Positions 4,142-24,513 of a stretch of DNA of 25,184 nucleotides are shown piece by piece. Where the stretch lies: positions 1 to 25,184 of IMG/VR virus record IMGVR_UViG_3300046559_000397. One strand, written 5' to 3'. The position numbers were made by a program, and so were the translations under genes. Positions within the stretch are counted from its first letter, which is position 1. Each line of letters opens with the position of its first letter. Origin of the DNA: a virus. The notes under the pieces were generated by a model. That model had not been told where the DNA came from. It saw only the letters and a program-made list of their open reading frames with translations, and made no database searches.

Positions 4142-4306
4142 TCATTCCTTTTTGGTTGGCGGCGGCACATAGGGATCGGGCACGCCACCGTCAGCGAGCC
4201 ATTGTTCGTACTCAGCACGATCACGGTTGGCGGGATCGTTCGGAATGAATGCCTGATCGGCTGTGCGGATGACGACATCGTTTTGTGTGAGTTGATAGTC
4301 TGACAT
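4142..4306 (-). CDS. Small fibre-partner/chaperone-like protein, copy B (54 aa)
   Basis: A 54-aa product begins MSDYQLTQNDVVIRTADQAF and continues [20 protein letters not shown], ending PPPTKKE. The core resembles the C-terminal segment of phage XkdW-like and tail-fibre-assembly proteins ([24 protein letters not shown]), recalled from those families. It is a paralogue of the 65-aa protein at 5370-5567, with about 40 aligned residues nearly identical. Its ATG overlaps the stop of fibre B (TGATG), so the two are translationally coupled. By analogy it may help fold or trimerise that fibre. Real-gene evidence is strong because the copy is conserved and coupled. Confidence 0.75.
   Translation of the reverse strand: MSDYQLTQNDVVIRTADQAFIPNDPANRDRAEYEQWLADGGVPDPYVPPPTKKE
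4209..4271. repeat. Duplicated chaperone-gene segment, copy B
   Basis: About 63 bases match 5470-5532 closely (shared starts TACTCAGCACGATCACGG). It lies within the small chaperone-like gene copy B. Confidence 0.8.
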
Positions 4307-5367: not shown

Positions 5368-5369
5368 GG

Positions 5370-5567
5370 TCAGGCTCCTCGCGATTTTTTGCTGGTTGTT
5401 TCCGGTGCAGGTTTTGCCGCGCTGCTTGTCGCAGGATCGGGCGTGTTGCCTTGCGCCAGCCACGCTTCATACTCAGCACGATCACGGTTGGCGGGGTCGT
5501 TCGGAATGAACGCCTGATCGGCGGTGCGGACAACGATGTCGGTTGTGGTGAGTTGATAGTCTGCCAT
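5370..5567 (-). CDS. Small fibre-partner/chaperone-like protein, copy A (65 aa)
   Basis: The product starts [20 protein letters not shown] and has [20 protein letters not shown], then a Ser/Ala/Pro/Lys tail ending KKSRGA. It matches copy B at 4142-4306 over the first 40 residues but has a longer tail. The ATG shares its A with the TAA stop of fibre A (TAATG), indicating coupled translation. The next gene, fibre B, starts 3 nt after its stop. The similarity to XkdW-like/tail-fibre-assembly tails is recalled from family knowledge. A chaperone or baseplate-attachment role is inference. Confidence 0.75.
5470..5532. repeat. Duplicated chaperone-gene segment, copy A
   Basis: Partner of 4209-4271, within chaperone copy A. 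Differences are mostly at third codon positions, consistent with an older duplication under selection. Confidence 0.8.
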
Positions 5568-7444
5568 TAGAGCCTCGCGTCTGCGACCCAGTGTGCCGAC
5601 AAAAGATAAGTTGTTCCTGACGCAATTTGTGCTGTAATCATCCCGCCGCGCTCGTTGATAGCAAGGATAGTAGCGGGCCAAGGACCGCTTTGTGAATTGT
5701 CCCAAACCGTCCCTGCTGTTCCGTTCGTCGTTCCATAAGATGTGAGAGTTGGTGCTGCTCTTTTCGGAATGAACTGCATCCCAAGCCCAACGGTAGTTGT
5801 TACAGGGACACTCGCTCCATAATATATAGCCGCACCACCAAGACCTGTGGCCGTTCCGGGCCTTACCGCATAAGGATAACTCTTTTCATAGTATCGTTGG
5901 CACATCAGCAATTCCTGATCGAACGGCCGCATCACATTCATCGACTGTGCGGCGGTTGGTGCTTGATTGCCGGGGAGGACGGTGACGCCGGTCATAATGA
6001 AATAATCAGAAGTCGCGGCAACGCCGTTGACTGTTCCAGTTGCCCCAAGCTGAACAGTCGAACTCCAAGCCCCGGCCGCACCCTGATTGTTGCTCCCAGA
6101 CATAATGGAAAAATGAACGGCCAAACCAATGGAATTGTCCGCCGTCCACGTCCCGGCAGTATCACCGGGTATGGTGACAGTGAAATACTGCCAAGCGCCG
6201 GATGTGGTGTAGTTGAACGTAAATATGTAGCCACGGTTTGCAGCGCCGTTGCGAACGCAGCCAGAATAAAGGCCAGTGCGGTTTGCGATCAGCCAAAACC
6301 CGAGCGTAATCGGTTGTGCCGCCGCCGTCCCCCAAGCAAGGCGCTTGATACGGTAGCCCTCAATGAACTGACGGAGCGTGCAATAGTCTGCTGCCGCCGG
6401 AGTTGGGTTTGCTGTCGTCACCGCTAACTGCAAGCCACTGTTTAGACCGGCTAAGGTTAAGTCCACTCTTTGAGTGCAAGAAAGGACATGCGCGCCGGAG
6501 GAGGCGATATTCCAGCCGTCAACAATGTATTTTACACCAGTAGGGACGGACACGGAGACAGCCCCATTCTCCTGACTGACCTCCATACCGCCATTGATCT
6601 GCATGCCGCTGTACGCCATCGCATCGAACGGTGCGGCGTAGATGTTGGCCCTCCCCTGTTGCTGCTGCGGCGCCGTCAGCGACTGTGCAGTGTCGTAGCG
6701 CACAACGGTACTGTTGAGCGCGTAGGCGGACGAATCCGGCACCGCGAACGCCGTCACCCATTGCGTGGTGTTGCCGTCGTTGTAGCGCACATAGAGCGTG
6801 CCGGTGTCGCTCTCCCACCACATCGCATTGTCAACGGCGCCCGCCGGCGCGTTGTCGGAAATAAGAAGTGCCGGGCGGCTATCGACGTATTGCTTGGTGG
6901 CGGCCTGCAAATTGGTGGACGGATTGCCCGACAGCGTCAGCAGTCCGGTCATCGTTGAACCAGCCTTGGCGACGTAGGCATTGTTGGCATTGGTGACGGC
7001 GCTGGCATCGGCGGCGGTGAAGGCGGCGGTGACGGCGGCATCGCCTGCGTCGGTATATTGCTTGGTGGCGGCGCCCAGCGGCGCGGTCGGATCGCCCGAT
7101 AACACCAATGGTCCGGTCATGGTGTCGCCGGCGGTATCGACGGCTTGGCTCTGGTCGAGATAGACCGCCCAGTTGGTCGCGTTGAAGGCGCCGGGACTGA
7201 CCGCAACCTTGGCGCGGTAGAGCACGCCGGCGTTGATGACGAAGTCGCCGATGGCGTATTGCGCGCGCGCATCAAAGAAGCGCACCGCCAGCAGCATCAA
7301 GGGATTGCCGAGCGAACCGGCATTGGCGTCGCCGACAACGATCTGCCGGTTGGCGGTGTTGACGGCAATCTCACCCGGCTCGATTGGCGACGGGAACGGA
7401 GTGGCCGGGTTGGACGTGCGCTGGTGCCGATAATGCGAGGTCAT
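5567..7444 (-). CDS. Tail fibre protein A
   Basis: This 625-aa virion fibre probably recognises the host surface. The N-terminal 90 residues contain a phage tropism-type element ([19 protein letters not shown]) and a CBM5/12-like piece ([18 protein letters not shown]). Two tail-fibre repeats follow: [20 protein letters not shown] near 107 and [20 protein letters not shown] near 162, each ending in ATKQY. Residues from about 270 form the receptor-binding-type region shared with fibre B. The C-terminus ends VADARL. AGGAGA 8 nt upstream supports the start. The stop overlaps the start of chaperone copy A. No diversity-generating reverse transcriptase or template repeat is visible nearby. Confidence 0.88.
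6564..6639. repeat. Duplicated fibre segment, copy A
   Basis: Partner of 5168-5240 within fibre A, at the boundary between shaft and receptor-binding region. Confidence 0.8.
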
Positions 7445-13288: not shown

Positions 13289-13508
13289 GGGTTGCGGTCG
13301 CCAGCGTTCCTCAAGTCGGGGGGTGGGCAGGGGTCGGTTTTGATTTTTTAGAAAGCCTTGCAGCACAGTGATTAATACGTGCTGTATGCGACACAGTATC
13401 GGACGATGCTGTGTCACATCAATGCGCGCTTTTCAGGGGTTTGTTTGGGGACAAGCCGCACGCGCACTGATGCAACGTGTTATTGCAGCGCTTGTTAAAG
13501 GCCTTGCG
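13289..13508. other. Intergenic region with CACAG/CTGTG repeats
   Basis: No gene is seen over these 220 bases. Inverted repeat GACACAG (13390-13396) / CTGTGTC (13409-13415) has a 12-bp spacer. A neighbouring AGCAC...GTGCT pair (about 13362-13383) repeats the same CAGCAC/GTGCTG theme. TGATTTTTTAG near 13341-13351 is T-rich and may end transcription of the plus operon, but no strong stem precedes it. Confidence 0.4.
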
Positions 13509-13730
13509 TCAATTCTCTTTCGCGCTCGCTGCAATCTCAGAGTCTAATTCTTCTATGCTCATCGCTGCCGGCGCTTTGCTTCCATCGGCGCGCGAGTCGC
13601 TACCGTAGAATTCTGCAAGCGTGCGGCCGGCGCTTGCACGCGCCGATGCTGGCGCTTTGCGATCTTGCAGAATGGTCAGCAATTCTTCCCTAATTAAATC
13701 GCTGAGTGTCCTTGGAATTCCGCGCGGCAT
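13509..13730 (-). CDS. Small hypothetical protein, possible terminase-small-like partner
   Basis: This 73-aa protein reads MPRGIPRTLSDLIREELLTI then LQDRKAPASARASAGRTLAE, FYGSDSRADG and an acidic SIEELDSEIAASAKEN tail. The pattern of a helical pair rich in Ala and Arg followed by an acidic tail recalls small phage proteins annotated as packaging or HTH-like; this is a weak resemblance. No ribosome site is visible; the start lies inside the HGG gene, so coupling is possible. If it were TerS, it would be unusually far (11 kb) from TerL. Confidence 0.5.
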   Translation of the reverse strand: MPRGIPRTLSDLIREELLTILQDRKAPASARASAGRTLAEFYGSDSRADGSKAPAAMSIEELDSEIAASAKEN

Positions 13731-13957
13731 TTATGTAGTTTTTTAACCTTGTTAACGTGCGAGGTCTTAAACCTCATTCGCTTTTGGCCGCCATGCTTAT
13801 TACAAAAACGCGATGATGTGACGGCGATGTTATGGCACGGCGATCCATCAGCCTTTAACCGTTCACATCGTCGCCTGTTAACGTTGCCCGGTAACAGTCG
13901 CGCTTTTAACAGCCCGACTTTCCAAACTACGTTTCCACTTCCTGCGGTGACTGGCAT
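13694..13957 (-). CDS. HGG-motif small phage protein
   Basis: The 87-aa frame contains CERLKADGSPCHNIAVTSSR then FCNKHGGQKRMR. This Cys-x(7-8)-Cys...C-x2-HGG layout is that of HGGxSTG/HGGxR-type phage proteins, which are often found beside terminase or HNH genes (family knowledge). The C-terminus is basic (KTSHVNKVKKLHKCR). The start is uncertain: ATG at 13957 has no ribosome site, and the first 25 residues look unlike the family, so a later alternative start is possible. The promoter presumably lies in the palindrome region immediately upstream (13958-14100). It overlaps the next gene by 37 nt. Confidence 0.55.
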   Translation of the reverse strand: MPVTAGSGNVVWKVGLLKARLLPGNVNRRRCERLKADGSPCHNIAVTSSRFCNKHGGQKRMRFKTSHVNKVKKLHKCRAEFQGHSAI

Positions 13958-13962
13958 TGGAC

Positions 13963-13980
13963 GGATTTAAACCCGGACGG
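13963..13980. repeat. Inverted repeat flanking the palindrome (left copy)
   Basis: The reverse complement of this segment, CCGTCCGGGTTTAAATCC, closely matches 14055-14071 (CCGTCCGAATTAAATCC). The two copies face each other across the 42-bp palindrome. A looser copy (GGACG with TTAAATCC) lies at 14202-14221. Confidence 0.75.
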
Positions 13981-13984
13981 TTCT

Positions 13985-14026
13985 TGGACGTAATACACAC
14001 TCTAGAGAGTGTGTGTATTACGTCCA
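13985..14026. repeat. 42-bp palindrome (16-bp perfect arms, 10-bp spacer)
   Basis: Left arm TGGACGTAATACACAC (13985-14000) is the exact reverse complement of the right arm at 14011-14026. The spacer TCTAGAGAGT contains CTCTAGAG-type symmetry, so pairing could continue with a 2-nt slip. No T-run follows on either strand, so it is not a typical terminator. Confidence 0.9.
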
Positions 14027-14054
14027 GAGAGTAACGGGCGGATTAAATCCAATT

Positions 14055-14071
14055 CCGTCCGAATTAAATCC
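14055..14071. repeat. Inverted repeat flanking the palindrome (right copy)
   Basis: CCGTCCGAATTAAATCC is the partner of the 13963-13980 element. It lies just after the odd palindrome GGATTAAATCC (14040-14050), giving dense iteron-like spacing on this side. Confidence 0.75.
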
Positions 14072-14235
14072 ATTATGTCCTTTCGTCCAACAACTCTAAA
14101 AACAGTTACACATCAAAACGTTAAGCACCCTACCCTACCGGACACACCCTTAAACCGTTCTTTTACACAGCTTCAACGTGTGAAATAAAAACGCATTTTT
14201 CGGACGAAATACATTAAATCCGACCTGTTAACAAA

Positions 14236-14263
14236 AAAGGCCTAGCAAACCTGCTAGGCCTTT
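14236..14263 (-). terminator. Rho-independent terminator for the 14286-14801 minus operon
   Basis: A perfect 12-bp stem AAAGGCCTAGCA / TGCTAGGCCTTT encloses the 4-nt loop AACC. Reading on the minus strand the stem is followed by TTTTTT (six Ts including the stem end), giving a strong intrinsic terminator. It lies about 20 nt beyond the stop of the 96-aa gene. In the plus direction only three Ts follow, so it is weaker there. Confidence 0.85.
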
Positions 14264-14285
14264 CCGCATTTGATGTCGCCGGCCG

Positions 14286-14576
14286 TCACACTGGCGCGCC
14301 GTTCGCTTCCAGCCATGCTGTCAGGTCTGCGATGGCTGCCGCACTGTTCTTTGCGTTCCACCGCTTGCCGTAGTCCTTGCCGCAAATCTTACCGGCCGTG
14401 GCCAGCATGTTGGCCGGGCTATAAGCGCTGTTAACCTTCATCCCCGTCTTTGCGTAGAACATCATCGCGCGCCGTACCGCCATCGCGCCGACGACATAGG
14501 GCGGGCTTGTCGGATAGGCCGGCTTCAATCCCAGTGGCGTCATCCCCGGCATTGCTGGTACTTGTGGCGTTTTCAT
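14286..14576 (-). CDS. Hypothetical protein, 96 aa, leader-motif gene
   Basis: This protein has no recognised domain. It starts MKTPQVPAMPGMTPLGLKPA (Pro/Met-rich), then contains YVVGAMAVRRAMMFYAKTGM and ends with a helix SAAAIADLTAWLEANGAPV. It is preceded by the shared leader motif and followed by a strong terminator. It forms a two-gene minus operon with the RMF-like gene, whose stop lies directly before the leader. Function unknown. Confidence 0.68.
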   Translation of the reverse strand: MKTPQVPAMPGMTPLGLKPAYPTSPPYVVGAMAVRRAMMFYAKTGMKVNSAYSPANMLATAGKICGKDYGKRWNAKNSAAAIADLTAWLEANGAPV

Positions 14577-14596
14577 TTGGTTGGTCCTTTTTGGTT
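14577..14596 (-). promoter_or_regulatory. Start-associated leader motif, gene 14576
   Basis: Reads CCAACCAAAAAGGACCA then ACCAAA-ATG on the minus strand. AGGACCA ends 6 nt before the start codon. Confidence 0.85.
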
Positions 14597-14600
14597 GGAG

Positions 14601-14801
14601 TTAAAAACAGCGAATTGCGCTGCTTAGTTTTTGTGTCAATCCGTACTCGCTTACGGTTCCGACATCGACGAATGTTCTTGCCCGGCCATCAACATACCCG
14701 GCCGCATATTCTTGCCCGTACACGGCAACGTCTGGCGGGCAATAGTCCTTGCCGCTTTGCCCGTCGCGATACCCGTCTGCGTAAAAACTTGATTTGGTCA
14801 T
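14601..14801 (-). CDS. RMF-like small protein (ribosome modulation factor-like)
   Basis: This 66-aa protein has the sequence FYADGYRDGQSGKDYCPPDV and then YGQEYAAGYVDGRAR. The arrangement GYxxGxxGxxxxCP followed by a second GYxxG/A helix is like ribosome modulation factor (GYQAGIAG...CPY...GW.EA), the protein that dimerises and silences ribosomes in stationary phase. Many phages carry RMF-like proteins, whose roles are mostly unproven. Calling it RMF-like is inference from this pattern; the C-terminal third (VSEYGLTQKLSSAIRCF) does not resemble RMF. Driven by the minus promoter at 14982-15009 and the shared leader. Confidence 0.58.
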   Translation of the reverse strand: MTKSSFYADGYRDGQSGKDYCPPDVAVYGQEYAAGYVDGRARTFVDVGTVSEYGLTQKLSSAIRCF

Positions 14802-14825
14802 TTGCTTTGGTCCTTTCTCAGTTGG
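14802..14825 (-). promoter_or_regulatory. Start-associated leader motif, gene 14801
   Basis: Reads CCAACTGAGAAAGGACCA then AAGCAA-ATG on the minus strand. It is the most diverged first half (CCAACTGA), but the AGGACCA block and 6-nt spacing are kept. Confidence 0.78.
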
Positions 14826-14981
14826 TTGCGGTTTTTAACATCCGGCCGCCATGCTGTCAATAGGTGTATATGCTCAATTAGTCTAATAGGCCATTTGACC
14901 CTACAAGCCTTTAAAAAACCTCCCCGCTACCTGCTATCCCCGCACCGCCTTTAAACCCGCCCACGGCCATCCTTGCGGCTC

Positions 14982-15009
14982 ATTGTAAACCGTTCTTTTA
15001 CCTAGTCAA
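14982..15009 (-). promoter_or_regulatory. Predicted minus-strand sigma70 promoter
   Basis: On the minus strand TTGACT (15009-15004) and TACAAT (14987-14982) are separated by 16 bp, matching the consensus at 5/6 and 5/6. It points to the 14801 and 14576 genes. A second candidate -35, TTGACA (14860-14855), lies closer but has only a weak -10 (TTAAAA). Confidence 0.6.
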
Positions 15010-15048
15010 TTCGCCACTGTTATGGAACATTTAGACCATATAACCCTA

Positions 15049-15078
15049 TTGACACCATACACGATAAGGGCATATAAC
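15049..15078 (+). promoter_or_regulatory. Predicted strong sigma70 promoter for the ardC-like gene
   Basis: TTGACA (15049-15054, 6/6) and TATAAC (15073-15078, 5/6) are separated by 18 bp. The ATG is 32 bp further on. CCCTATTG at 15044-15051 recurs at 17543-17550. Confidence 0.72.
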
Positions 15079-15089
15079 CATCACAGCGA

Positions 15090-15109
15090 CCAACCAAGGA
15101 CCAAGGACC
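15090..15109 (+). promoter_or_regulatory. Start-associated leader motif, gene 15110
   Basis: Reads CCAACCAAGGACCA then AGGACC-ATG. The AGGACC block is doubled here, as at 16773. Confidence 0.88.
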
Positions 15110-16003
15110 ATGAAAAAAGACCTGTACCAGACAGTAACAAACCGAATTCTTTCTGAACTGGAAAAAGGCTGTGTGCCATGGGTCAAGCCATGGGCAGCGA
15201 CAGCCGGTGCCAATCAACCTTGCAATGCGGATACCGGCCGGCCGTATTCGGGCGTCAATATCATCCTGATTTGGCAAGCCATGGCATCTAATCCGCAGTG
15301 GACGACTCCCCGCTTCCTGACGTTCAAGCAATGCCAAGCGCTAGGCGGACACGTCAAAAAGGATGAGCACGGCATACAGGTTTACTTTGTGAAGCCGCTA
15401 CTGGTTAAGGGCAAGAAAGAACAGCCAGCCGGTGATGAAGAATTGAAGCGCATCACCATGTTGCGCGAATTCACCGTTTTCAACGTCGCCCAATGCGACA
15501 ACTTGCCGGCCCGTTGCCTTGGCACAGTCGCGCCAAAAATCAGGAACAAGGACAGCCGCGACTCTACCGTTGACTCATTCATTGCCACGCTTGGCAGCGA
15601 CTTGAGGCATGGCGAGGACCGGGCTTACTACGCTTCCAGCCATGACTTTGTGATGTTGCCTAACTTCCAAGACTTCAAAGGCGCTGACCATTACTATGCG
15701 ACAAGCTTCCATGAACACGGCCATTGGACTGGCAACGAAAAGCGGCTTAACCGCGAATTCGGAAAGCGCTTTGGCGACAAGGCCTATGCGGCGGAAGAAT
15801 TGGTCGCTGAACTCACAGCGGCTTTCCTTTGCGCTGAATTCGGTATCGACGGCGATTTGCGCCATGCGGCCTATGTGTCGAACTGGATTGCTATTCTAAA
15901 GTCAGACTCCAAAGCATTCTTCACAGCGGCAAGCGCTGCACAAAAGGCCGCCGATTATATGCGCGGCCTTGCACTCGCAGAGCCGCTTGCAGTCGCGGCC
16001 TAG
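15110..16003 (+). CDS. ArdC-like anti-restriction protein with zincin-type metallopeptidase domain
   Basis: This 297-aa protein has the two-domain ArdC layout. The N-terminal domain (residues 1-130) starts MKKDLYQTVTNRILSELEKG, carries PWVKPW near 23-28 and RPYSGVNIILIW near 44-55, typical of the ssDNA-binding ArdC domain. The C-terminal metallopeptidase-like domain has HEHGH at 201-205 (HExxH, in FHEHGHWTGN) and a downstream Glu cluster AAEELVAELTAAF near 227-239 that may give the third zinc ligand. ArdC-type proteins protect incoming DNA from restriction enzymes, usually by binding DNA. It is headed by the strongest promoter in the module. A GC-rich hairpin follows the stop. Confidence 0.88.
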   Translation: MKKDLYQTVTNRILSELEKGCVPWVKPWAATAGANQPCNADTGRPYSGVNIILIWQAMASNPQWTTPRFLTFKQCQALGGHVKKDEHGIQVYFVKPLLVKGKKEQPAGDEELKRITMLREFTVFNVAQCDNLPARCLGTVAPKIRNKDSRDSTVDSFIATLGSDLRHGEDRAYYASSHDFVMLPNFQDFKGADHYYATSFHEHGHWTGNEKRLNREFGKRFGDKAYAAEELVAELTAAFLCAEFGIDGDLRHAAYVSNWIAILKSDSKAFFTAASAAQKAADYMRGLALAEPLAVAA

Positions 16004-16005
16004 TC

Positions 16006-16049
16006 GCTATCTAGCACGGCCGGCGCAATGCCGGCCGTGTCGGGATAGC
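16006..16049 (+). terminator. Strong GC hairpin between the ardC-like and next gene
   Basis: The inner stem CACGGCCGGC (16015-16024) / GCCGGCCGTG (16030-16039) is perfect with loop GCAAT. Outside it GCTATC (16006-16011) pairs with GATAGC (16044-16049). There is no T-run, so it may be an RNA-stability or attenuation element rather than a classical terminator. A related stem occurs at 17182-17218. Confidence 0.7.
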
Positions 16050-16064
16050 ATCTAAGGCTATCGA

Positions 16065-16083
16065 CCAACCAAGGACCAAGACA
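16065..16083 (+). promoter_or_regulatory. Start-associated leader motif, gene 16084
   Basis: Reads CCAACCAAGGACCAAGACA-ATG; identical over all 19 bases to the leader of gene 17262. Confidence 0.9.
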
Positions 16084-16356
16084 ATGCCGAGCAAAAAGAA
16101 CGTCTGGCGCAAACGCGGCCGCCTTGAATTCCGCCGCGAAACGAAACGCTATAGCGACGGGACTCCATGGGGCATTGATGTGCTCTATGTCCGCGTGAAA
16201 AAGCGCGACTGCGCCATCGTCGAACCTTTTGAGCTAACCAGCTACCGCGAACAAGGCAAAACGCTTTCTGTCCTGCCATCGCTAGGCAGCACATACCGCA
16301 TTGATAGGCCGGCCAGAATTCCGGCCATCATCCGCGCAAGCTTGCGCGGCCTGTAG
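16084..16356 (+). CDS. Hypothetical protein, 90 aa, leader-motif gene
   Basis: The product begins MPSKKNVWRKRGRLEFRRET and is basic and beta-leaning: DGTPWGIDVLYVRVKKRD then EPFELTSYREQGKTLSVLPS. It ends IPAIIRASLRGL. No domain is recognised. Its shared leader places it in the same set as the ardC-like gene. Function unknown. Confidence 0.68.
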   Translation: MPSKKNVWRKRGRLEFRRETKRYSDGTPWGIDVLYVRVKKRDCAIVEPFELTSYREQGKTLSVLPSLGSTYRIDRPARIPAIIRASLRGL

Positions 16357-16379
16357 CCAACCAACCAAGGACCAACGCT
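16357..16379 (+). promoter_or_regulatory. Start-associated leader motif, gene 16380
   Basis: Reads CCAACCAACCAAGGACCA then ACGCT-ATG. The leader begins one base after the stop of the previous gene, with an extra CCAA unit. Confidence 0.88.
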
Positions 16380-16730
16380 ATGACCCTCACAAAGCGATTA
16401 CAGGCTGACAAGGCGCGCACCATGCGCGACCCCACCAGAAACGAAATGCTTACCTTTCTCGCCGGCTTTTATCCCGGCGAGGCAGACCAATTTGACCGTG
16501 AGGCCGCAATCTACTGGTTTGCAAACGACTGGCATGGCGGACAATGGTCAAATCTTTATGCGGCCTTGTGTGCCTCGATGTACCGGCCGGGCCTGACCAG
16601 CAATGGAGTCCTGCCCGGCAGCATGGCGGCCATGCTCTATGAAGAATTGCAAGCGCGCTATTGCGAGGTGGCAGAGGATAAAGAGGCGCGCATTGCACGC
16701 CACTGCGAAGCTGATGAGCCGCACCGTTGA
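16380..16730 (+). CDS. Hypothetical protein, 116 aa, leader-motif gene
   Basis: Residues about 25-95 contain FLAGFYPGEADQFDREAAIY, WFANDWHGGQWSNLYAALCA and SMYRPGLTSNGVLPGSMAAM. This conserved-looking WSNLYAALCAS.YRPG core is familiar from rhizobial phage/prophage hypotheticals (recalled), with no function assigned. The C-terminus is a charged helix (AEDKEARIARHCEADEPHR). Likely a soluble folded protein. Leader motif directly upstream. Confidence 0.7.
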   Translation: MTLTKRLQADKARTMRDPTRNEMLTFLAGFYPGEADQFDREAAIYWFANDWHGGQWSNLYAALCASMYRPGLTSNGVLPGSMAAMLYEELQARYCEVAEDKEARIARHCEADEPHR

Positions 16731-16746
16731 ACATATCAGGCAGACT

Positions 16747-16772
16747 CCAACCAACCAAAAGGACCAAGGACC
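16747..16772 (+). promoter_or_regulatory. Start-associated leader motif, gene 16773
   Basis: Reads CCAACCAACCAAAAGGACCA then AGGACC-ATG, with a doubled AGGACC as at 15090-15109. Confidence 0.88.
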
Positions 16773-17165
16773 ATGTGGAAATTTTACGACGCATTCACGC
16801 AACGCAGCGAGGGTTACCAGCCGCAGCAAGGCCCGATGCCATTAAAGCGCTGGATAGCGGACGGCAAGCGCCACAAGCTGCACTACCGCGCACCCAAGCG
16901 CCCGAAAGTCACGCCAACCACCGACTCGCAATTTGAGCGCAAGGCCGCCGACTATGCCCGATGGCTTGCCAAGCGCGACGGGATTGTGTTGCCCAACACA
17001 TACAGCGTTAGCGTGATCTGGTCAGGTGTGAGCGCTAACAACGCGTCCCGATGGGAGCGCAGAATTCGCGCCGTGACTTTCGGGACCGTGACAATCGACC
17101 TGCCTAACTGGGACTTCATACCGGAGTCCTTGGCAGAGTCGGAACCACTGCAAGAGGCGGCCTAA
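16773..17165 (+). CDS. Hypothetical protein, 130 aa, leader-motif gene
   Basis: The first 50 residues are very basic (KRWIADGKRHKLHYRAPKRP), followed by a helix ERKAADYARWLAKRDGIVLP and a beta-like segment NTYSVSVIWSGVSANNASRW, then an acidic C-terminal tail ending EPLQEAA. The basic start could bind nucleic acid; this is inference. No family recognised. A hairpin follows the stop. Confidence 0.66.
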   Translation: MWKFYDAFTQRSEGYQPQQGPMPLKRWIADGKRHKLHYRAPKRPKVTPTTDSQFERKAADYARWLAKRDGIVLPNTYSVSVIWSGVSANNASRWERRIRAVTFGTVTIDLPNWDFIPESLAESEPLQEAA

Positions 17166-17181
17166 TCAGTCGCTATCGCAG

Positions 17182-17218
17182 CACGGCCGCGCAGGTCCGC
17201 CACACCCTGCCGGCCGTG
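17182..17218 (+). terminator. GC hairpin after the 130-aa gene
   Basis: CACGGCCG (17182-17189) and GCAGG (17191-17195) pair with CCTGC and CGGCCGTG (17206-17218), a 13-bp stem with one bulged C and a 10-nt loop. The outer stem repeats CACGGCCG/CGGCCGTG of the 16015-16039 hairpin. There is no T-run. Confidence 0.65.
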
Positions 17219-17239
17219 TCACGATGGCGATGGTGCCGT

Positions 17240-17261
17240 CAACCAACCAAGGACCAAGACA
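17240..17261 (+). promoter_or_regulatory. Start-associated leader motif, gene 17262
   Basis: Reads CAACCAACCAAGGACCA then AGACA-ATG; the 19 bases before ATG equal those of gene 16084. Confidence 0.9.
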
Positions 17262-17534
17262 ATGGCGAAGCTTATTCTATCGACCTACAACGCCCAACGT
17301 TCAAATGGCTTTCTGCAAGTCGCGCTTAGTATCGGCAGCGATGGGCCGCTGCCGTCAAAGACGGTAGAAATTAAACGCACCATAGATGCGGCGGCCGAAC
17401 TGGAAACCTACAAACAAGAGGCGGCCGCGCTTGGAATTCCGCTTGTCGTTTCCTTGCGGATTGCCAGAGGCGACCGTTCGCCGAACGGCTTTGATGCGTT
17501 CAATGCCGCCGGCTTCCATCCTGTTAACGTCTAA
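17262..17534 (+). CDS. Hypothetical protein, 90 aa, leader-motif gene
   Basis: MAKLILSTYNAQRSNGFLQV leads a strand-rich start, then SKTVEIKRTIDAAAELETYK and EAAALGIPLVVSLRIARGDR, finally GFDAFNAAGFHPVNV. An alpha/beta small domain is likely. No family recognised. It is followed by a perfect 12-bp hairpin at 17541-17570. Confidence 0.66.
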   Translation: MAKLILSTYNAQRSNGFLQVALSIGSDGPLPSKTVEIKRTIDAAAELETYKQEAAALGIPLVVSLRIARGDRSPNGFDAFNAAGFHPVNV

Positions 17535-17540
17535 GCCATT

Positions 17541-17570
17541 AGCCCTATTGCCTTGGTAGGCAATAGGGCT
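17541..17570 (+). terminator. Perfect 12-bp hairpin after the 90-aa gene
   Basis: AGCCCTATTGCC (17541-17552) pairs exactly with GGCAATAGGGCT (17559-17570) around loop TTGGTA. Only ATATA follows, so termination is uncertain. The same stretch contains CCCTATTG as in the promoter at 15044-15051, and TTGCCT-16-TATATA could be a weak promoter for the next gene. Confidence 0.65.
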
Positions 17571-17584
17571 ATATACCCCAACCG

Positions 17585-17606
17585 ACAACCAGCAAGGACC
17601 ATAGAC
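17585..17606 (+). promoter_or_regulatory. Start-associated leader motif, gene 17607
   Basis: Reads ACAACCAGCAAGGACCA then TAGAC-ATG. The first half is diverged (ACAACCAGC), but AGGACCA and its 5-nt distance are kept. Confidence 0.78.
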
Positions 17607-18065
17607 ATGACCCGTTTTGTCGAAGCGCACGATCTGGAACCGTATGCAATCAATACCGGCGAATTCTACCAGACGCACCTTGCCCTAGTTGGCAAGGATT
17701 TAGGCGAGTGGATGGAGCACGTTCGCCAAAAGGTCCTAACACGGTACTGCAAAGAAATTGAGCCGGTGAAGCTGGCAAACGATGTCAACATCGCCGTGGC
17801 CACCAAGCTGATGGGCTACTACATCCGCCACACCAACGAGTCGAAGGCGCTGGCAGACTCAGAGCGTAGCGGATTGCCGCCGACGCCGTGGGAATTCCGG
17901 GGCAACGGCGACACGTTTGCCATCGTGGACAAAAACGACAGGCTTGTTTTTGAACTGCCCTACATCGAGGAAACCGACAAGGAGCCGCTAGACACAGCAA
18001 GCGGCCGGCTTGTCGTGATGATTGTGGACGCTGTGAATGCAAAGGGACGCAATGACCAAACGTGA
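17607..18065 (+). CDS. Hypothetical protein, 152 aa, leader-motif gene
   Basis: The protein begins MTRFVEAHDLEPYAINTGEF. It has a helical middle (GEWMEHVRQKVLTRYCKEIE, then DVNIAVATKLMGYYIRHTNE) and a beta C-terminal half (WEFRGNGDTFAIVDKNDRLV, then SGRLVVMIVDAVNAKG). The start at 17607 is chosen from the leader, not the longer frame from 17553 that crosses the hairpin. No family recognised. The next gene's ATG lies inside its final codons. Confidence 0.68.
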   Translation: MTRFVEAHDLEPYAINTGEFYQTHLALVGKDLGEWMEHVRQKVLTRYCKEIEPVKLANDVNIAVATKLMGYYIRHTNESKALADSERSGLPPTPWEFRGNGDTFAIVDKNDRLVFELPYIEETDKEPLDTASGRLVVMIVDAVNAKGRNDQT

Positions 18066-18252
18066 ATTCCTAGCAGCGCTTAAAGAATTGCACCTTGGCA
18101 CTGCCAGCAAAGCGACCGTGCGCGCGCTTGGCGTGACCGTGACGCAGATTCAGCGGCTGGCATCCGGCCGGCAACGTGTCACGCGCCAGCTAGAACTGTT
18201 GCTTCATATGTATCGCAAGCACGGCATCCCCAAACAGGTGCCGGGTGAGTAG
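18052..18252 (+). CDS. Small helix-turn-helix-like protein, 66 aa
   Basis: MTKREFLAALKELHLGTASK precedes ATVRALGVTVTQIQRLASGR and VTRQLELLLHMYRKHGIPKQ. The middle resembles an HTH that joins a LGVTVTQIQRLASG helix pair, like small Cro-type phage regulators. AGGGA lies 4-8 nt before ATG 18052. It overlaps the preceding gene by 14 nt and lacks the CCAACCAA leader, unlike neighbours. It may regulate the module. Confidence 0.65.
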   Translation: MTKREFLAALKELHLGTASKATVRALGVTVTQIQRLASGRQRVTRQLELLLHMYRKHGIPKQVPGE

Positions 18253-18319
18253 TACCGCCCTGCCAATGGCCGGCATCATCGCCATTGTCTTGTGGATCAT
18301 TTTTGATGATGCGTTCTAA
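18245..18319 (+). CDS. Possible 24-aa membrane peptide
   Basis: A GTG start at 18245, overlapping the previous stop region, gives VSSTALPMAGIIAIVLWIIF then DDAF, one hydrophobic helix with an acidic end. There is no clear separate ribosome site, but PGE-TAG coupling is possible. The stop lies at the start of the next leader. Weakly supported. Confidence 0.35.
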   Translation: MSSTALPMAGIIAIVLWIIFDDAF

Positions 18320-18339
18320 CCAACCAAAGGACCAAACAA
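18317..18339 (+). promoter_or_regulatory. Start-associated leader motif, gene 18340
   Basis: Reads TAACCAACCAAAGGACCA then AACAA-ATG. This is the last copy of the motif on the plus strand. Confidence 0.88.
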
Positions 18340-18423
18340 ATGATTCTGATTCTCCTGCTGGGCCTCTTGGCTTGGCTCATCATCCACGTCGTTGTCTGGT
18401 GGATCACCAAGGAGTCGGCGTGA
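18340..18423 (+). CDS. 27-aa single-pass membrane peptide with leader motif
   Basis: The frame MILILLLGLLAWLIIHVVVW then WITKESA is one membrane helix with two Lys/Glu at the end. Having a full copy of the shared leader makes it much more convincing than length alone would. Its stop overlaps the next ATG (TGATG). Confidence 0.7.
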   Translation: MILILLLGLLAWLIIHVVVWWITKESA

Positions 18424-18632
18424 TGGACTGGGTCGTAGGGATTGCCGTTTTGTATGGCCTTTATTGGCTGGCCCACAAAATGATCGACGTTTTTTTATAT
18501 CCGCCAGAGGTTAGGGCGGAAGAAGCGAGGCGCGAAGCTGAATGGGAGGCCACTCGCAAGAGTTACGAAGCCATGCAGGAGCTACAATTCCGCAACCGTA
18601 TGGAAGAAGCGAAGCGACAGGCACGACCATGA
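18423..18632 (+). CDS. Small membrane-anchored coiled-coil protein, 69 aa
   Basis: An N-terminal membrane helix [20 protein letters not shown] is followed by a charged, Glu/Arg-rich helix ([20 protein letters not shown] then [20 protein letters not shown]). The topology suggests an inner-membrane anchor with a cytoplasmic coiled coil. ATG at 18423 is coupled to the previous stop, and its own stop to the recombinase start (ATGA). Function unknown. Confidence 0.66.
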
Positions 18633-19267
18633 CTAAAGCCGTCATTGCCTACTATCGGGTATCGACGCAGAAGCAAGGCCGCAGCGGGCTGGGCTTGGAA
18701 GCCCAGCGCGCGGCGGTGTTGCGTTTCATCGAAGCCGAACAACTAAAGCTACTGGCGGAATTCACAGAGGTGGAAACCGGCAAAGGCTCAGACGCCCTTG
18801 ACCGTCGCCCGCAGCTTGCCGCCGCCATGCAGGCAGCCAAGAAGCAAGGTGCTTCGATTGTGGTGGCCAAGCTCGACCGCCTTTCCCGCGACGTTGCGTT
18901 TATATCGACGCTGATGGTGCGCAAGGTGCCGTTCATCACCGCCGAATTGGGCACGCAAGCCGACCCGTTCATGCTGCACATCTATGCCGCACTGGCAGAA
19001 CAGGAACGGCGGATGATTAGCCAGCGCACCAAGGCCGCACTCAAGGCCGCCAAGGCGCGCGGTGCCAGAATCGGAACGCCGGACTTTGGAGCAAAGAACA
19101 AAAAGGCCGCAGCCAAGCGGGCGCTGGAACTAAAACCCGTCTTTGTTGAACTGGCAGAATTGAGCGCCAGACAAATCGCGCTGGAATTAAACCGTCGCAA
19201 GGTTGCGACCCCGACCGGCGCGCCATGGTCCGGTAAGACCGTTAGCCGGGTACAGGGGCGGTTGTAG
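18629..19267 (+). CDS. Serine recombinase (resolvase/invertase family)
   Basis: This 212-aa site-specific recombinase has the catalytic domain at the N-terminus: YYRVST with nucleophile Ser12, [25 protein letters not shown] (residues 80-88) and [18 protein letters not shown] (121-138). The C-terminal about 50 residues ([20 protein letters not shown] then [15 protein letters not shown]) look like a short HTH DNA-binding tail. That is the small resolvase/invertase size, not a large serine integrase. It is coupled to the membrane protein upstream and overlaps the convergent ATPase gene by 26 bp. It could resolve, invert or integrate DNA; the target is not visible. Confidence 0.9.
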
Positions 19268-20501
19268 CTTCCGGCAGCACGCGCCACATCAAAACCTTGC
19301 CATCGCCGGCGTAGCTCGACACAAACTTGCGCGCCTCGCGGTGCTTGTTTGCCCTATCCCATGCTTTCCTCACAGCATCGTCGCGCTTGGTTGGGTCGCC
19401 TACTGAGGGATACTTGTGCGCGAAGGCGTCGCGCACAACTGAGTCCTCGACGCAACGCATGACCGGATACCCCGGACCCGGTGCCATCATCTTGCCGCTG
19501 CTGGCCAGTGCATCATCAAGCGCAGCCAACAGCGGCAACAGCGACACATTGGGCCGCCCTGCCCGACTGTGAACCACGATACCGTCCCACTGTACTGTCA
19601 TTTCCACAATTGGCTCACCATCCAGATCACGGCCCATGTCAACCGGCGACAGCCTGAAAGGTATTTCATCGCCGGCCGCCCCGCCCCGCATCTTGCGGAT
19701 GGCCAGCCGCGAGTTACGCAGCACGCCGGTTTGCGATTTCTCACCGAGCACCGAGAGCACAAAGTCGGCGCTGGCTTCCTTGGCACTCGACCCGCGCACG
19801 CCCCGGCTTTCGTCCTTGCCGAAGTGATCGACCACCAGCACGGTAGCGTCCGTTGCTGCCGACAGACGCGCAAGCAGATTCATAACCCGCTGTGCTTCGC
19901 TGGCATCGTTCTGATCTTTGAAGTCGGCGGCAGCGGCCAGCGTATCAACTGCAATGAGTACCAGCCCACAATCGAATTGCTCTGCCAGTTCATGCTTCAT
20001 ACGCTCGCAGAAATTAAACATCTTGTCGTAGGCATCGTCCGCAGACAGCCGTGGCACATTGGTAATCCACTTGAACGGCAGGCGCTTCATGTCCTCGCCG
20101 ATTTCAGTGAACCACGGCGCGATTTTAGCCTTGCGTAATCCCTCCCAGCGCTTGCGGACCTGTGACGGCGCCTCTGCCGCGAACAGGATCACACCGCCAA
20201 CTTGGTCAACTGGTTTGTTTGCAAAGTCGCGTTGCAGAATCAGACACTGCACCAGATCGAGCACGGCAAACGTCTTGCCCATGCCGGACTGGCCGGCCAT
20301 CAGCCCAACGCCCATCTTGGGGACAATGCCCTTGACCAGCCAGCCTTGCGGCGGCGTTTCATCCGGGTCGCCTTCCCACTGGCCTTTGTATTCGTCCGCC
20401 ATCCACGGCTTGTCATGGCCGTTGGCTTTGCGCGCCCATGAAATGTCAGGCTTGTCGTGCCGCGAATTCTTTTCGACGTAAGGCCGGATTTCTTTAGCCA
20501 T
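19242..20501 (-). CDS. RepA-like AAA ATPase / replicative helicase
   Basis: This 419-aa RecA-fold NTPase resembles RSF1010 RepA and AAA_25-type phage helicases. Walker A is GQSGMGKT at about 70-77, then [19 protein letters not shown] at about 105-123, Walker [11 protein letters not shown] (180-189), and sensor [10 protein letters not shown] (221-230) with [14 protein letters not shown]. The first 50 residues are variable. ATG at 20501 is chosen over 20573 because the extra 24 residues overlap the primase frame and look unlike coding sequence. The overlap with the upstream primase is 8 bp, so the two are co-expressed and probably form the replication fork unwinding-priming unit. Confidence 0.85.
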
Positions 20502-21869: not shown

Positions 21870-22303
21870 ACCGACACACTGGCCTTTACGGCGCCCCATG
21901 CTTTGAGTTTGTTGATGGCGTCCTTGTAGTTGTCGCACCAGAAATACGGATAGCCGTTGAGCACGCAGAATTCGGAAAACGATTGTTGCCACTCCGATAG
22001 CTTGCTGCCTTTGCGCTTCAATTCCAGAAAATGCACGCCGCCGAATTCATGCAAATCCTCAAATGTCTGGATTGGCGCCAGCAGAATAAAATCCGGCCAG
22101 CCGACTTGCACGCCCATGCGTTTCAGCCGCATCGCCGTTGCCGGGTGCCGGTACTCGCCGGCCGGGAAATGCGACCAGCGCCAGCCCGGCATCTGCCAGC
22201 GGCGCAGCGTGTCGGCGACCATGCAGTGCGTGACGTACTCTTTGGCCGGCGGTGATTTCACGCCGCGCTGACGTTTGCTTTTGAACAGCGACAATTGCGC
22301 CAT
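21866..22303 (-). CDS. VRR-NUC domain nuclease
   Basis: At 145 aa it has the compact VRR-NUC layout. Catalytic motifs are Asp71 in VGWPDFILL and Glu94-Leu-Lys96 in VHFLELKRKGSKLSEWQQSF, with the conserved Gln about 10 residues on. A Glu near residue 22 (PAKEYVTH) may complete the site. Related phage VRR-NUC enzymes process branched or flapped DNA in replication. AGGGG lies about 8 nt upstream. It is followed by a second PD-(D/E)XK-type protein with ATGA overlap. Confidence 0.85.
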   Translation of the reverse strand: MAQLSLFKSKRQRGVKSPPAKEYVTHCMVADTLRRWQMPGWRWSHFPAGEYRHPATAMRLKRMGVQVGWPDFILLAPIQTFEDLHEFGGVHFLELKRKGSKLSEWQQSFSEFCVLNGYPYFWCDNYKDAINKLKAWGAVKASVSV

Positions 22304-22312
22304 GCGCGACCC

Positions 22313-22558
22313 CTAAGCCGCTGCACTGTTTTGTTCTGGCTCAAAATCCCATAGCCCTTGCGGCGCGTCGTAACCGTTTGCGCGCAATTGCTTTCGCATC
22401 ATCGGGTAAAATCTGGCGGGGAAACTTTTGCGTTCATTCACCCAGTGGTGGACTTGCGGCGGTCGCCGGCGCACCAGCCGCGCCACGGAACTTATGCCAC
22501 CCAGCGCCGCGACCACGGCCGACTGCGTTGAAAGTATTTGTTTTTTGCGTTTAGCCAT
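22313..22558 (-). CDS. Cro-like / carph-isopro HTH regulator
   Basis: This 81-aa protein has a basic start MAKRKKQILSTQSAVVAALG, then GGISSVARLVRRRPPQVHHW and VNERKSFPARFYPMMRKQL. The order matches short phage regulators of the carph-isopro/YdaS type (recalled), where the AARL...PQVHHW helices read DNA. Its C-terminus (PQGLWDFEPEQNSAAA) is typical of these. It lies at the head of the minus replication operon and next to the control region 22559-22866, so it probably represses or activates those divergent promoters. Confidence 0.72.
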   Translation of the reverse strand: MAKRKKQILSTQSAVVAALGGISSVARLVRRRPPQVHHWVNERKSFPARFYPMMRKQLRANGYDAPQGLWDFEPEQNSAAA

Positions 22559-22866: not shown

Positions 22867-23673
22867 GTGCTGACCCAAGCGCAACTCAAAGCCCGCGAAA
22901 ACAGATTGACCGCTTCCGTTGCGCCGGTGGTCATGGGTGACGATCAATCCAAGCTGACCGAACGCTGGAAGGTCGCCATCGGCGCCATGCCCGAACCGGA
23001 CTTGTCCGATGTGTGGGCGGTGCAGTGGGGATCACACGGCGAAACGTTCACCCTCGACTGGCATGAACGCAAAACCGGCCAGCCGCTGACCGAGCGCGGC
23101 ACGTTCTGCCCGCATCCGACGCTGCCCTATATCGGTTGCACGCTCGACGCCTACCGCGCCTTCGACGATACCGTGCTCGACTGCAAAGTTAGTTCCAGCT
23201 TCAACCCGCTCGACGACATCATCGAATACTACACGCCGCAGATCATCGTGCAGATGCGCTGCCGGCAAGCGGCGCGTGGCGCGTTACTGGTCGTCCACGG
23301 CACCGCCGCCCCGCGCGAACTGGAAATCAAGGCGGACCCGGAATACGAAAAGGAACTGTGGGAGCGCATGGCCGCGTTCTGGCTGTGCGTTGAAACGTTG
23401 ACCCCGCCGATGGCACTCCCCAAGGCCATCCCGCCGTCGCAGTGGCGCAAGATCGTCCTCGACCCCGACAATGAGGGCGTGTGGCCGAACTGGGGGCAGG
23501 ACATGGCGGCGTGCTTGCGGGTGTGGAAGTTCACCAAGGCACACGCCGAAATGTATGCCGAAGCCAACAAGGAACTGCGCGACATCATCCCCGACGATGT
23601 CGGGCTGATCGAGTTTGAAAATATGCGTGTCATCCGCAACCGCGCTGGCAGCATCACCGTGAAGCGAGGCTAA
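22867..23673 (+). CDS. YqaJ-type viral recombinase (5'-3' exonuclease)
   Basis: This 268-aa exonuclease acts with the neighbouring annealing protein in Red-like recombination. The PD-(D/E)XK core is at residues about 90-110: CTLDAYRAFD (Asp94) followed by DTVLDCKVSS, with Asp105-x-Lys107 in place of the usual Glu-x-Lys. Then YYTPQIIVQM (121-130) supplies the conserved Gln. The HGETFTLDWHERKTG segment near 58-72 is typical of YqaJ. The start is GTG at 22867 after GGGAG at 22857-22861. The DCK variant is worth noting but compatible with the family. Confidence 0.85.
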   Translation: MLTQAQLKARENRLTASVAPVVMGDDQSKLTERWKVAIGAMPEPDLSDVWAVQWGSHGETFTLDWHERKTGQPLTERGTFCPHPTLPYIGCTLDAYRAFDDTVLDCKVSSSFNPLDDIIEYYTPQIIVQMRCRQAARGALLVVHGTAAPRELEIKADPEYEKELWERMAAFWLCVETLTPPMALPKAIPPSQWRKIVLDPDNEGVWPNWGQDMAACLRVWKFTKAHAEMYAEANKELRDIIPDDVGLIEFENMRVIRNRAGSITVKRG

Positions 23674-23676
23674 CCC

Positions 23677-24513
23677 ATGTCCCTCCCCGCGCTTGTCCCG
23701 CAGTCGCTGCATGAAGCCATGGAACTGGCCGACCAGCTTGCCAGTAGCCGGCTGATCCCGAAGGATTTTAAGGGGTCGCCGCCCGACATCCTCAGTGCCA
23801 TTTCGCTGGCGCAGCGCTGGCAAATGGACATCTGGGCGGTGATGGAGCATGTGTCGATTATTCAGGGCAAGCGCTTCATCGACGGACAGATGGCGGGCGC
23901 GCTTATCAATGCGCTGGCCAACGTGCAGCGGCCAATCGTTCACACCTACAGGGGCGAAGGCGACGACCGCACCGTCACGGCTTCCGCGACATTCAACGGG
24001 GAGACTAAGCCGCGCGAAATCGAGGTACGGCTGGGTGACGCCCGCACGCCCAACAGCGCTTGGAAAAAACAGCCCGACCAGCAGCTTGCCTATACCGCCA
24101 ACCGGGTCTGGGGCCGCCGCAACTGCCCGCAATTGTTTGTGGGCATCCATTTCAAGGGCGAGCACGTCATCGAACTGGACGCCACCGAAGTCCCCACCAC
24201 CGAACTGCCGCAACTGGCGCAGCCGATTGCACCGGAAGCCGACCCCGACACCGGCGAAATCGGGCCGCGCAATCTGGCCATCGGCGATCAAGAGGAATGG
24301 CTGGCGTGGGGTCAGCGTTTCATGGCCGCCATCGGCGCGGCGGAAACTGAGGAGGACATCAAGCTGTGGCGCGAACACAACGCGGCCGAGCTTGAACTGA
24401 TGGCGACCGACGAGCCGAAGCTTTTTGAAAAGATGATGCTCTACGTCCACAAGCGCGCCGACAAGTTGAAGCCAAAGAAGGAGGCAAAGCCCAAGGAGGA
24501 GGTGCCGCCGTGA
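23677..24513 (+). CDS. RecT-like ssDNA annealing protein
   Basis: This 278-aa protein reads MELADQLASSRLIPKDFKGS then PPDILSAISLAQRWQMDIWA and VMEHVSIIQGKRFIDGQMAG. The pattern (LA..LA.S.L.P..FKG.P.D...A...G...G..P..A...I..I.G.P...G...) is that of phage RecT-type annealing proteins (family knowledge). Around 85-105 VHTYRGEGDDRTVTASATFN is a beta-hairpin, and the C-terminus is acidic/charged (KLKPKKEAKPKEEVPP). Just downstream of the exonuclease, so the pair anneals resected ends. The TGA stop is coupled to the next GTG. Confidence 0.8.
   Translation: MSLPALVPQSLHEAMELADQLASSRLIPKDFKGSPPDILSAISLAQRWQMDIWAVMEHVSIIQGKRFIDGQMAGALINALANVQRPIVHTYRGEGDDRTVTASATFNGETKPREIEVRLGDARTPNSAWKKQPDQQLAYTANRVWGRRNCPQLFVGIHFKGEHVIELDATEVPTTELPQLAQPIAPEADPDTGEIGPRNLAIGDQEEWLAWGQRFMAAIGAAETEEDIKLWREHNAAELELMATDEPKLFEKMMLYVHKRADKLKPKKEAKPKEEVPP

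What the first reader, a model, noticed from the sequence alone, without database searches (positions are those of the whole stretch)
14576..18345. Nine genes on both strands share a near-identical start-associated leader
Directly before nine genes (starts 14576, 14801, 15110, 16084, 16380, 16773, 17262, 17607, 18340) the sequence reads CCAACCAA, 0-3 bases, AGGACCA, then exactly 5-6 nt and ATG. AGGACCA is in all nine; two leaders are identical over 19 bases. AAGGA alone could be a weak ribosome site, but the flanking CCAA repeats go well beyond that. The motif is absent from the other genes of the window. It resembles Start-Associated Sequences known in Cluster K mycobacteriophages, but the sequence is different and the host appears to be an alphaproteobacterium. 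It may bind a phage regulator, modify translation, or guide recombination between cassettes. The set includes an ArdC-like anti-restriction gene, an RMF-like gene and a 27-aa membrane peptide, so it could be a co-regulated takeover module. Because it is at both strands and at tiny genes, it can be used to find module members elsewhere.
Basis: partly seen in the sequence, partly recalled or inferred. Interest (0 to 1): 0.85.

Follow-up and report, generated by a model that had tools for sequence, protein, structure and literature searches.

The report
Repeated start leader of phage genes
A phage known only from environmental DNA puts nearly the same short leader in front of nine unrelated genes, related phages put different leaders in front of the same kinds of gene, and genes appear to be gained, lost and replaced at these leaders.

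Summary
Nine mutually non-homologous genes on both strands start 5-6 nt after AGGACCA (9 found, 0.14 expected); seven also carry CCAACCAA, two a decayed form. The array sits in an early/accessory-type module; in a 43.6-kb sister record 11 of 12 leaders lie in the first 5.6 kb. It is not a common alphaproteobacterial ribosome site: one tight pattern gives 6 matches in the window but 7, against 5 for its reversed control, in 289 whole genomes.

(1) The leader goes with the genome, not the gene: ArdC and two other gene families carry different shared leaders in other phages. (2) The leader is a hinge: between the window and a sister about 90% identical, 5 of 12 homology ends fall in leaders, with one exact leader-to-leader fusion that removes a gene; in two sisters another gene sits between leader and original gene, overlapping it by ATGA.

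Best reading: a start-associated translation leader, SAS-like but unrelated in sequence, that also offers in-register homology for cassette exchange. The translation role is inferred; the hinge statistics are modest (P 3.6e-4 to 0.14 by null). Host unknown.

The parts
14577..14598 (-). leader of gene 14286-14576
   Evidence: 25-bp island 14574-14598 conserved in sister G004 between diverged stretches; in G004 it precedes another 70-aa ORF
14802..14829 (-). leader of gene 14601-14801 (decayed CCAACT form)
   Evidence: homology to L010 ends at 14815 inside it
15088..15109 (+). leader of ardC-like gene 15110-16003
16063..16083 (+). leader of gene 16084-16356; left partner of the leader-to-leader fusion in L010
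16357..16379 (+). leader of gene 16380-16730; right partner of that fusion
16747..16772 (+). leader of gene 16773-17165; homology to L010 ends at 16751 (default scoring) or 16738 (other scoring)
17240..17261 (+). leader of gene 17262-17534
   Evidence: upstream and leader conserved in G004, first 90 nt of coding sequence 52%
17580..17606 (+). leader of gene 17607-18065 (decayed form); no protein match to this gene in G004, DNA homology ends at 17585
18316..18339 (+). leader of 27-aa hydrophobic peptide 18340-18423
15037..15078 (+). promoter-like element upstream of ardC (CATATAACCCTATTGACACCAT ... TATAAC)
   Evidence: no inverted repeat of 8 nt or more found here and not listed by the consensus promoter scan
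14844..14872 (-). divergent copy of the same element upstream of gene 14801 (2 mismatches)
   Evidence: (I1, 84%)
17540..17575 (+). 14-bp perfect inverted repeat overlapping promoter-like TTGCCT...TATA upstream of gene 17607
   Evidence: (I23)
16004..16062 (+). predicted intergenic hairpin before the leader of 16084
17166..17239 (+). predicted intergenic hairpin before the leader of 17262
15110..16003 (+). ArdC-like antirestriction protein
22867..24513 (+). RecE-like exonuclease and RecT-like annealing protein, candidate recombinases (role here inferred)

Best explanation
It is a phage start-associated leader: an A/C-rich, poorly structured stretch plus a moderate Shine-Dalgarno core (AAGGA) at fixed distance from ATG, placed in front of nine genes of one accessory-type module, often just after a predicted hairpin and, for a subset, behind a shared promoter-like element. 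It most likely gives each gene cassette the same translation start (inferred). Because the leaders are nearly identical, they also act as in-register homology at which cassettes are lost, gained or replaced while the downstream gene keeps a working start (seen as homology ends and a chimeric leader; that enzymes such as the phage RecE/RecT pair do it is inferred). The leader word is uniform within a phage lineage, so a gene that enters a lineage tends to end up behind that lineage's leader.
For: Position and copy number: 9 vs 0.14 expected. Non-homologous genes. Module restriction: no other copy in the window; in sister record G029 11 of 12 leaders lie in the first 5.6 of 43.6 kb. Not a common host motif: 7 vs 5 control in 289 genomes, 6 in the window with the same pattern. 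Relatives keep the leader directly in front: 4 of 5 in G029 and 4 of 5 in G004. Leader goes with genome: ArdC, the 17262 family and the G029-2634 family carry AAGGGGA-type leaders in L086; ArdC carries other repeated leaders in 9 of 14 distant loci. Hinge: 5 of 12 homology ends in leaders that make up 5.6% of the module, P 3.6e-4; chimeric leader in L010 with the left flank of the 16084 leader and the right flank of the 16380 leader, same block order in a second contig, L014. In both exceptions to leader retention a different gene sits directly behind the leader and overlaps the original gene by ATGA. Leader region more open than non-leader starts (unpaired 0.64 and 0.68 vs 0.45); pairing with the recalled 16S tail only -4.9 and -5.8 kcal/mol, so pairing does not explain the conserved flanks.
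Against: The hinge statistic weakens with other alignment scoring (4 of 12, P 0.0033) and when only intergenic positions are allowed (P 0.035 or 0.14); the 12 ends were picked by me from the collinear blocks. In other families ends in leaders are about 3-fold above expectation (8 of 152 vs 2.3; 11 of 114 vs 3.7; 6 of 76 vs 2.3), but pairs are not independent. The one whole-genome switch (L014) lies 20-185 nt inside the gene, not in the leader. The ardC leader is no better conserved than its upstream DNA in G004 (96% vs 100%). The 16380 relative in G029 and the 14576 relative in G004 have no leader directly in front. The AAGGGGA leaders are little more open than controls (0.51 vs 0.45). A consensus promoter scan found 2 sites against 3.3 expected, none at these elements. 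No expression data.
Confidence: 0.62

Rival explanations
1. Only an optimised ribosome site: selection for an unstructured A/C context and a Shine-Dalgarno core makes leaders look alike; breakpoints fall there because gaps between genes are short and shared sequence extends alignments.
For: A/C-rich leader (G+T 20% vs 47% upstream), greater openness; the intergenic-only breakpoint test is weak.
Against: A particular word recurs rather than any A/C string; other phages with the same gene families use quite different words; Shine-Dalgarno pairing is modest; sampled alphaproteobacterial genomes hardly use the word above control.
Confidence: 0.2
2. Binding site for a phage- or host-encoded RNA-binding protein or small RNA that switches the module on or off at translation.
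For: Uniform word per lineage, both strands, one module; the SAS authors raised the same possibility for Cluster K (PMC3203893, passages).
Against: No candidate factor found; three lineages with the word share no protein at E 1e-6 among the partial loci compared.
Confidence: 0.13
3. Recent copying of one leader by duplication or gene conversion without function.
For: Near identity of some leaders (16084 and 17262).
Against: Leader kept before relatives only 50-73% identical in protein (4 of 5 in G029); position always fixed to ATG; genes not homologous.
Confidence: 0.05

Closest known systems
[quoted passage not shown]
   Same: Short repeat typically 3-7 bp before the start codon, 11-19 copies per genome, non-structural half only, contains a Shine-Dalgarno core plus conserved flanks that cannot pair, no exact copy in M. 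smegmatis (PMC3203893, passages); about half of the SAS genes have an inverted repeat, which holds a putative promoter (PMC3203893 and PMC11373665, passages).
   Different: Sequence unrelated (GGGATAGGAGCCC versus ACCAACC/AGGACCA); different phages; gene starts on both strands; several alternative leader words at the same gene families and homology ends in the leader are added here. The role of SAS is itself unknown.
26-bp repeat of Citrobacter phage Mordin
   Same: SAS-like repeat upstream of 8 hypothetical genes (PMC4611695, one passage).
   Different: Different sequence; I saw no evolutionary analysis in that passage.
PeSL promoter/stem-loop cassettes of T4-like phages
   Same: Repeated intergenic regulatory unit reported to mediate gene shuffling (through PMC4503421, passages; the original papers are not held).
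   Different: PeSLs are promoter-terminator units; here the repeat is a start leader and only some copies have a promoter-like element.

Membership tests
Cluster K SAS | 13-bp consensus GGGATAGGAGCCC with at most 2 mismatches | tested here: not met
   0 matches in the window, both strands
Cluster K SAS | Within a few nt of start codons, ATG-biased | tested here: met
   9 of 9 at ATG, 5-6 nt (the search pattern itself required ATG; a start-free listing of AGGACC is)
Cluster K SAS | Restricted to non-structural genes | tested here: met
   most module genes have no family match, so 'non-structural' rests on location
Cluster K SAS | Rare or absent in host | tested here: inconclusive
   7 vs 5 control in 289 Alphaproteobacteria, but the true host is unknown
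Extended SAS | Imperfect inverted repeat with sigma-70-like promoter upstream of a subset | tested here: inconclusive
   CATATANCCCTATTGACACCAT with up to 3 mismatches: 2 in window, 2 in L100, 4 in L010, 0 expected; inverted repeats in L010, L100 and window 17540-17571 but not at window ardC; consensus promoter scan negative
T4 PeSL | Early promoter plus terminator stem-loop as a unit | tested here: not met
   Hairpins before several leaders; the terminator scan lists none before the leaders of 16084, 17262 or 17607; promoter-like element at a minority
T4 PeSL | Mediates modular shuffling | tested here: inconclusive

The most novel reading that the evidence does not exclude
Each phage lineage has its own start leader as a lineage-specific code: genes acquired from outside enter directly behind a leader, by recombination at the leader itself, and are thereby translated during infection, possibly because a lineage-specific factor prefers that word. 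The leader would be both the entry socket for new genes and the key to their expression, and leader words would reveal the trade routes of accessory and anti-defence genes.
Probability: 0.22. Interest if true: 0.85.

Novelty: new variant of a known kind. Interest (0 to 1): 0.6.

Why it matters
The role of SAS was left open in 2011 and still was in the papers of 2024 and 2025 that I saw in passages. Here the same gene family is found behind different leaders in different phages, and cassette changes coincide with leaders, which makes two explanations (translation code, recombination socket) directly testable. Leaders also give a sequence-only handle for listing small phage genes, including an anti-restriction gene and peptides too short for usual gene callers.

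Tried and rejected
Host ribosome site: not supported for sampled Alphaproteobacteria (7 vs 5 control in 289 genomes, one of the 7 in a genome reached through the motif itself; six genomes reached through the motif had 1 match each and 1 control match in all). The genome-contig scan gave 22 stretches in 257 Gb, 7 of them alphaproteobacterial; my own uniform-base estimate for chance was about 15, no control was run.

Known phage relatives: no blastn match of window 13500-19300 in 50,697 phage records. Rhizobium phages L338C (first 100,000 of 109,558 bases) and RHph_N65 lack the array. Plasmid relatives: the two Microvirga ArdC genes examined lack the leader.

Assembly artefact: the fusion occurs in two contigs, L010 and L014, and the window arrangement is continuous in five others, L012, L022, L024, L041, L043, so it is unlikely; the L014 switch could be an assembly chimera and was not counted.

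RMF homology: not supported. Cluster K as an independent test of the hinge: 10 of 272 ends in SAS regions vs 3.2 expected over 12 ordered pairs of 4 phages (right parts only), heavily non-independent, so only suggestive. A crude gene-caller test of lineage leaders (27 loci) did not separate L087, L088, L091 or L099 from control windows, separated the window only weakly (6 vs 5), and also failed on Adephagia, a true SAS phage, so it is insensitive. The L091 leader stays weak (4 of 6 occurrences start-linked), and so does the one in L122. In 5 of 14 distant ArdC loci (L090, L092, L093, L095, L096) no shared leader was seen.

Rows dropped: from the homology ends I left out the 14574-14598 island, the repeat-to-repeat matches and the two outer ends of the region. 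Of 18 AGGAC-start matches in G029 I counted the 12 with a CCAACC-like stretch as leaders. The 14576 line for G004 used a start 2 nt off and, as one search shows, compares a different gene; it is not used. In one search I had compared only with leader genes of G029; the unrestricted search is. Sharing of one word by three lineages is partly imposed by searching for that word, so it is not treated as proof of common origin.
Full report
WHAT IS THERE. The window is a 25,184-bp virus record with terminase large-subunit, tail-fibre, primase, helicase-like, RecE-like and RecT-like genes. Between them, 14286-18423, lies a module of small genes. AGGACCA-N(5-6)-ATG occurs at nine starts, two on the minus strand, and at no other place in the window (9 versus 0.14 expected). 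Seven leaders carry CCAACCAA; 14801 and 17607 have decayed versions. The nine proteins do not resemble each other; only the ArdC-like one has a Pfam or PHROG match at E 0.01.

SURROUNDINGS. Predicted hairpins stand before several leaders (16084, 16380, 17262, 17607). Mean folding z-scores of the -85 to -21 stretch are -2.0 (9 window leader genes), -1.4 (11 in G029) and -2.0 (18 in L086-L088) against -0.3 for 12 window genes without leader, whose starts I chose by hand; 4 of 9, 5 of 11, 11 of 18 and 2 of 12 are below -1.5. An element CATATANCCCTATTGACACCAT occurs divergently before ardC and gene 14801 and again in sisters, with none expected. In L010 it is part of a perfect 14-bp inverted repeat, in G029 of a 9-bp one, and a 14-bp repeat lies before gene 17607 in the window; none was found at window ardC. 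It looks like a promoter by eye, but a consensus scan does not list it. This resembles the ESAS of Cluster K, a putative promoter with inverted repeat upstream of part of the SAS genes (PMC11373665, passages).

DISTRIBUTION. A strict motif scan of viral contigs gave 42 stretches, 12 with two or more copies; five of those 12 (L012, L022, L024, L041, L043) are near-identical copies of the window's phage. In 35 of the 42 records a looser form CCAACC...AGGA...ATG gives 127 matches, overlaps counted, against 2 for the reversed control; at least one per record is there by selection. A tighter form gives 6 in the window and 0 reversed, and 7 against 5 reversed in 289 alphaproteobacterial genomes. In G029 (43.6 kb; 74% DNA identity in ardC) 12 leaders are seen, 11 in the first 5.6 kb.

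LEADER AND RELATIVES WITHIN THE GROUP. Five of the nine window proteins have relatives in G029, 50-73% identical; four have the leader directly in front. The fifth, the 16380 family, starts by an ATGA overlap behind another gene (G029 2080) that has the leader. In G004 five have relatives; four have the leader directly in front; the fifth, 14576, has lost its first 19 residues and starts by an ATGA overlap behind a 70-aa ORF that has taken the place behind the leader. So both exceptions look like entry of a gene directly behind the leader.

LEADER GOES WITH GENOME. A protein search for ArdC, blind to the leader, gave 23 loci: 9 at 73-100% identity, of this group, and 14 at 31-63%. I printed the upstream DNA for 5 of the 9 (5 of 5 have the leader) and for the 14 others (0 of 14). 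In 9 of those 14 the ArdC start carries another leader that is repeated at other genes of that contig: AGCAAGGGGAA-like (L086-L089), CCGCGAGGA (L091, weak), GAAAGGCTACA (L094), TATATAAAGAACTAACAAAG...AAGGAGATG and variants (L097-L099). In L086 two further gene families that have the ACCAACC leader in the window or G029 carry the AAGGGGA leader. Another possible leader type appears in L122.

THE HINGE. L010 (record G004) is about 90% identical to the window. Homology ends at 14815, 16079, 16360, 16751 and 17585, all inside leaders, out of 12 ends in the module (P 3.6e-4, or 3.3e-3 with other scoring where 16751 becomes 16738). With ends limited to intergenic DNA the P values are 0.035 and 0.14. 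Same-size windows at +1..+26, -52..-27 and +27..+52 hold 0, 0 and 1 end. The clearest case: L010 lacks gene 16084, and its leader joins the left flank of the 16084 leader to the right flank of the 16380 leader, in register within ACCAACCAAGGACCAA; L014 has the same block order. At 16380 and 16773 upstream DNA is 53-54% identical, leader 85-88%, coding start 96-99%; at 17262 it is the reverse, 97%, 100%, 52%.

MECHANISM. Shown: placement, module restriction, lineage specificity, homology ends. Inferred: that the leader sets translation, from its position, openness (0.64-0.68 versus 0.45 unpaired; 0.51 for the AAGGGGA type) and Shine-Dalgarno core; that exchange uses leader homology, perhaps by the phage RecE/RecT pair. 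Pairing with the 16S tail (recalled sequence) is moderate, -4.9 and -5.8 kcal/mol for two window leaders, so the conserved CCAACC and CC need another reason: lack of structure, a binding factor, or being kept alike by recombination.

KNOWN KINDS. It works like SAS/ESAS but is not a member by sequence. The SAS authors noted position and non-pairing conserved flanks and left the role open (PMC3203893, passages); later papers call the role ill-defined (PMC11373665, passages) or in need of experiments (PMC12699233, passages). A SAS-like repeat is reported in Citrobacter phage Mordin (PMC4611695, passage). Shuffling at repeated intergenic units is known for T4 PeSLs (through PMC4503421, passages). 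My paper searches for the motif word and for SAS or similar elements brought nothing closer in their listings.

LIMITS. No isolate, no host, no expression data; nearly all relatives are metagenome contigs; sister pairs are few.

Noticed in passing
13985-14026: A 19-bp inverted repeat (95%) in a stretch without obvious genes that also holds repeated ATTTAAA/TTAAATCC words; could be a replication origin or operator region.
   Followed up: no
L097-L099: About 40% GC phages with a repeat of roughly 30 nt, TATATAAAGAACTAACAAAGATAAGGAGATGA and variants, before many genes; possibly promoter plus leader in one unit.
   Followed up: partly
22271-22527: L043 matches the window over 13.9 kb except for 60 differences all within 22271-22527, a localised allele replacement.
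   Followed up: no
L014: First 4.6 kb (reverse strand) identical to G004, right part almost identical to the window; the switch lies 20-185 nt inside gene 16773. Recombinant or assembly chimera.
   Followed up: partly
4306-7444: Two neighbouring tail-fibre genes match the same PHROG family (phrog_4492), and the region left of about 6570 matches the sister G004 only in short pieces.
   Followed up: no
L055, L059, L068: The strict leader pattern occurs at three places of one Candidatus Phytoplasma ziziphi chromosome; possibly a repeated element.
   Followed up: no
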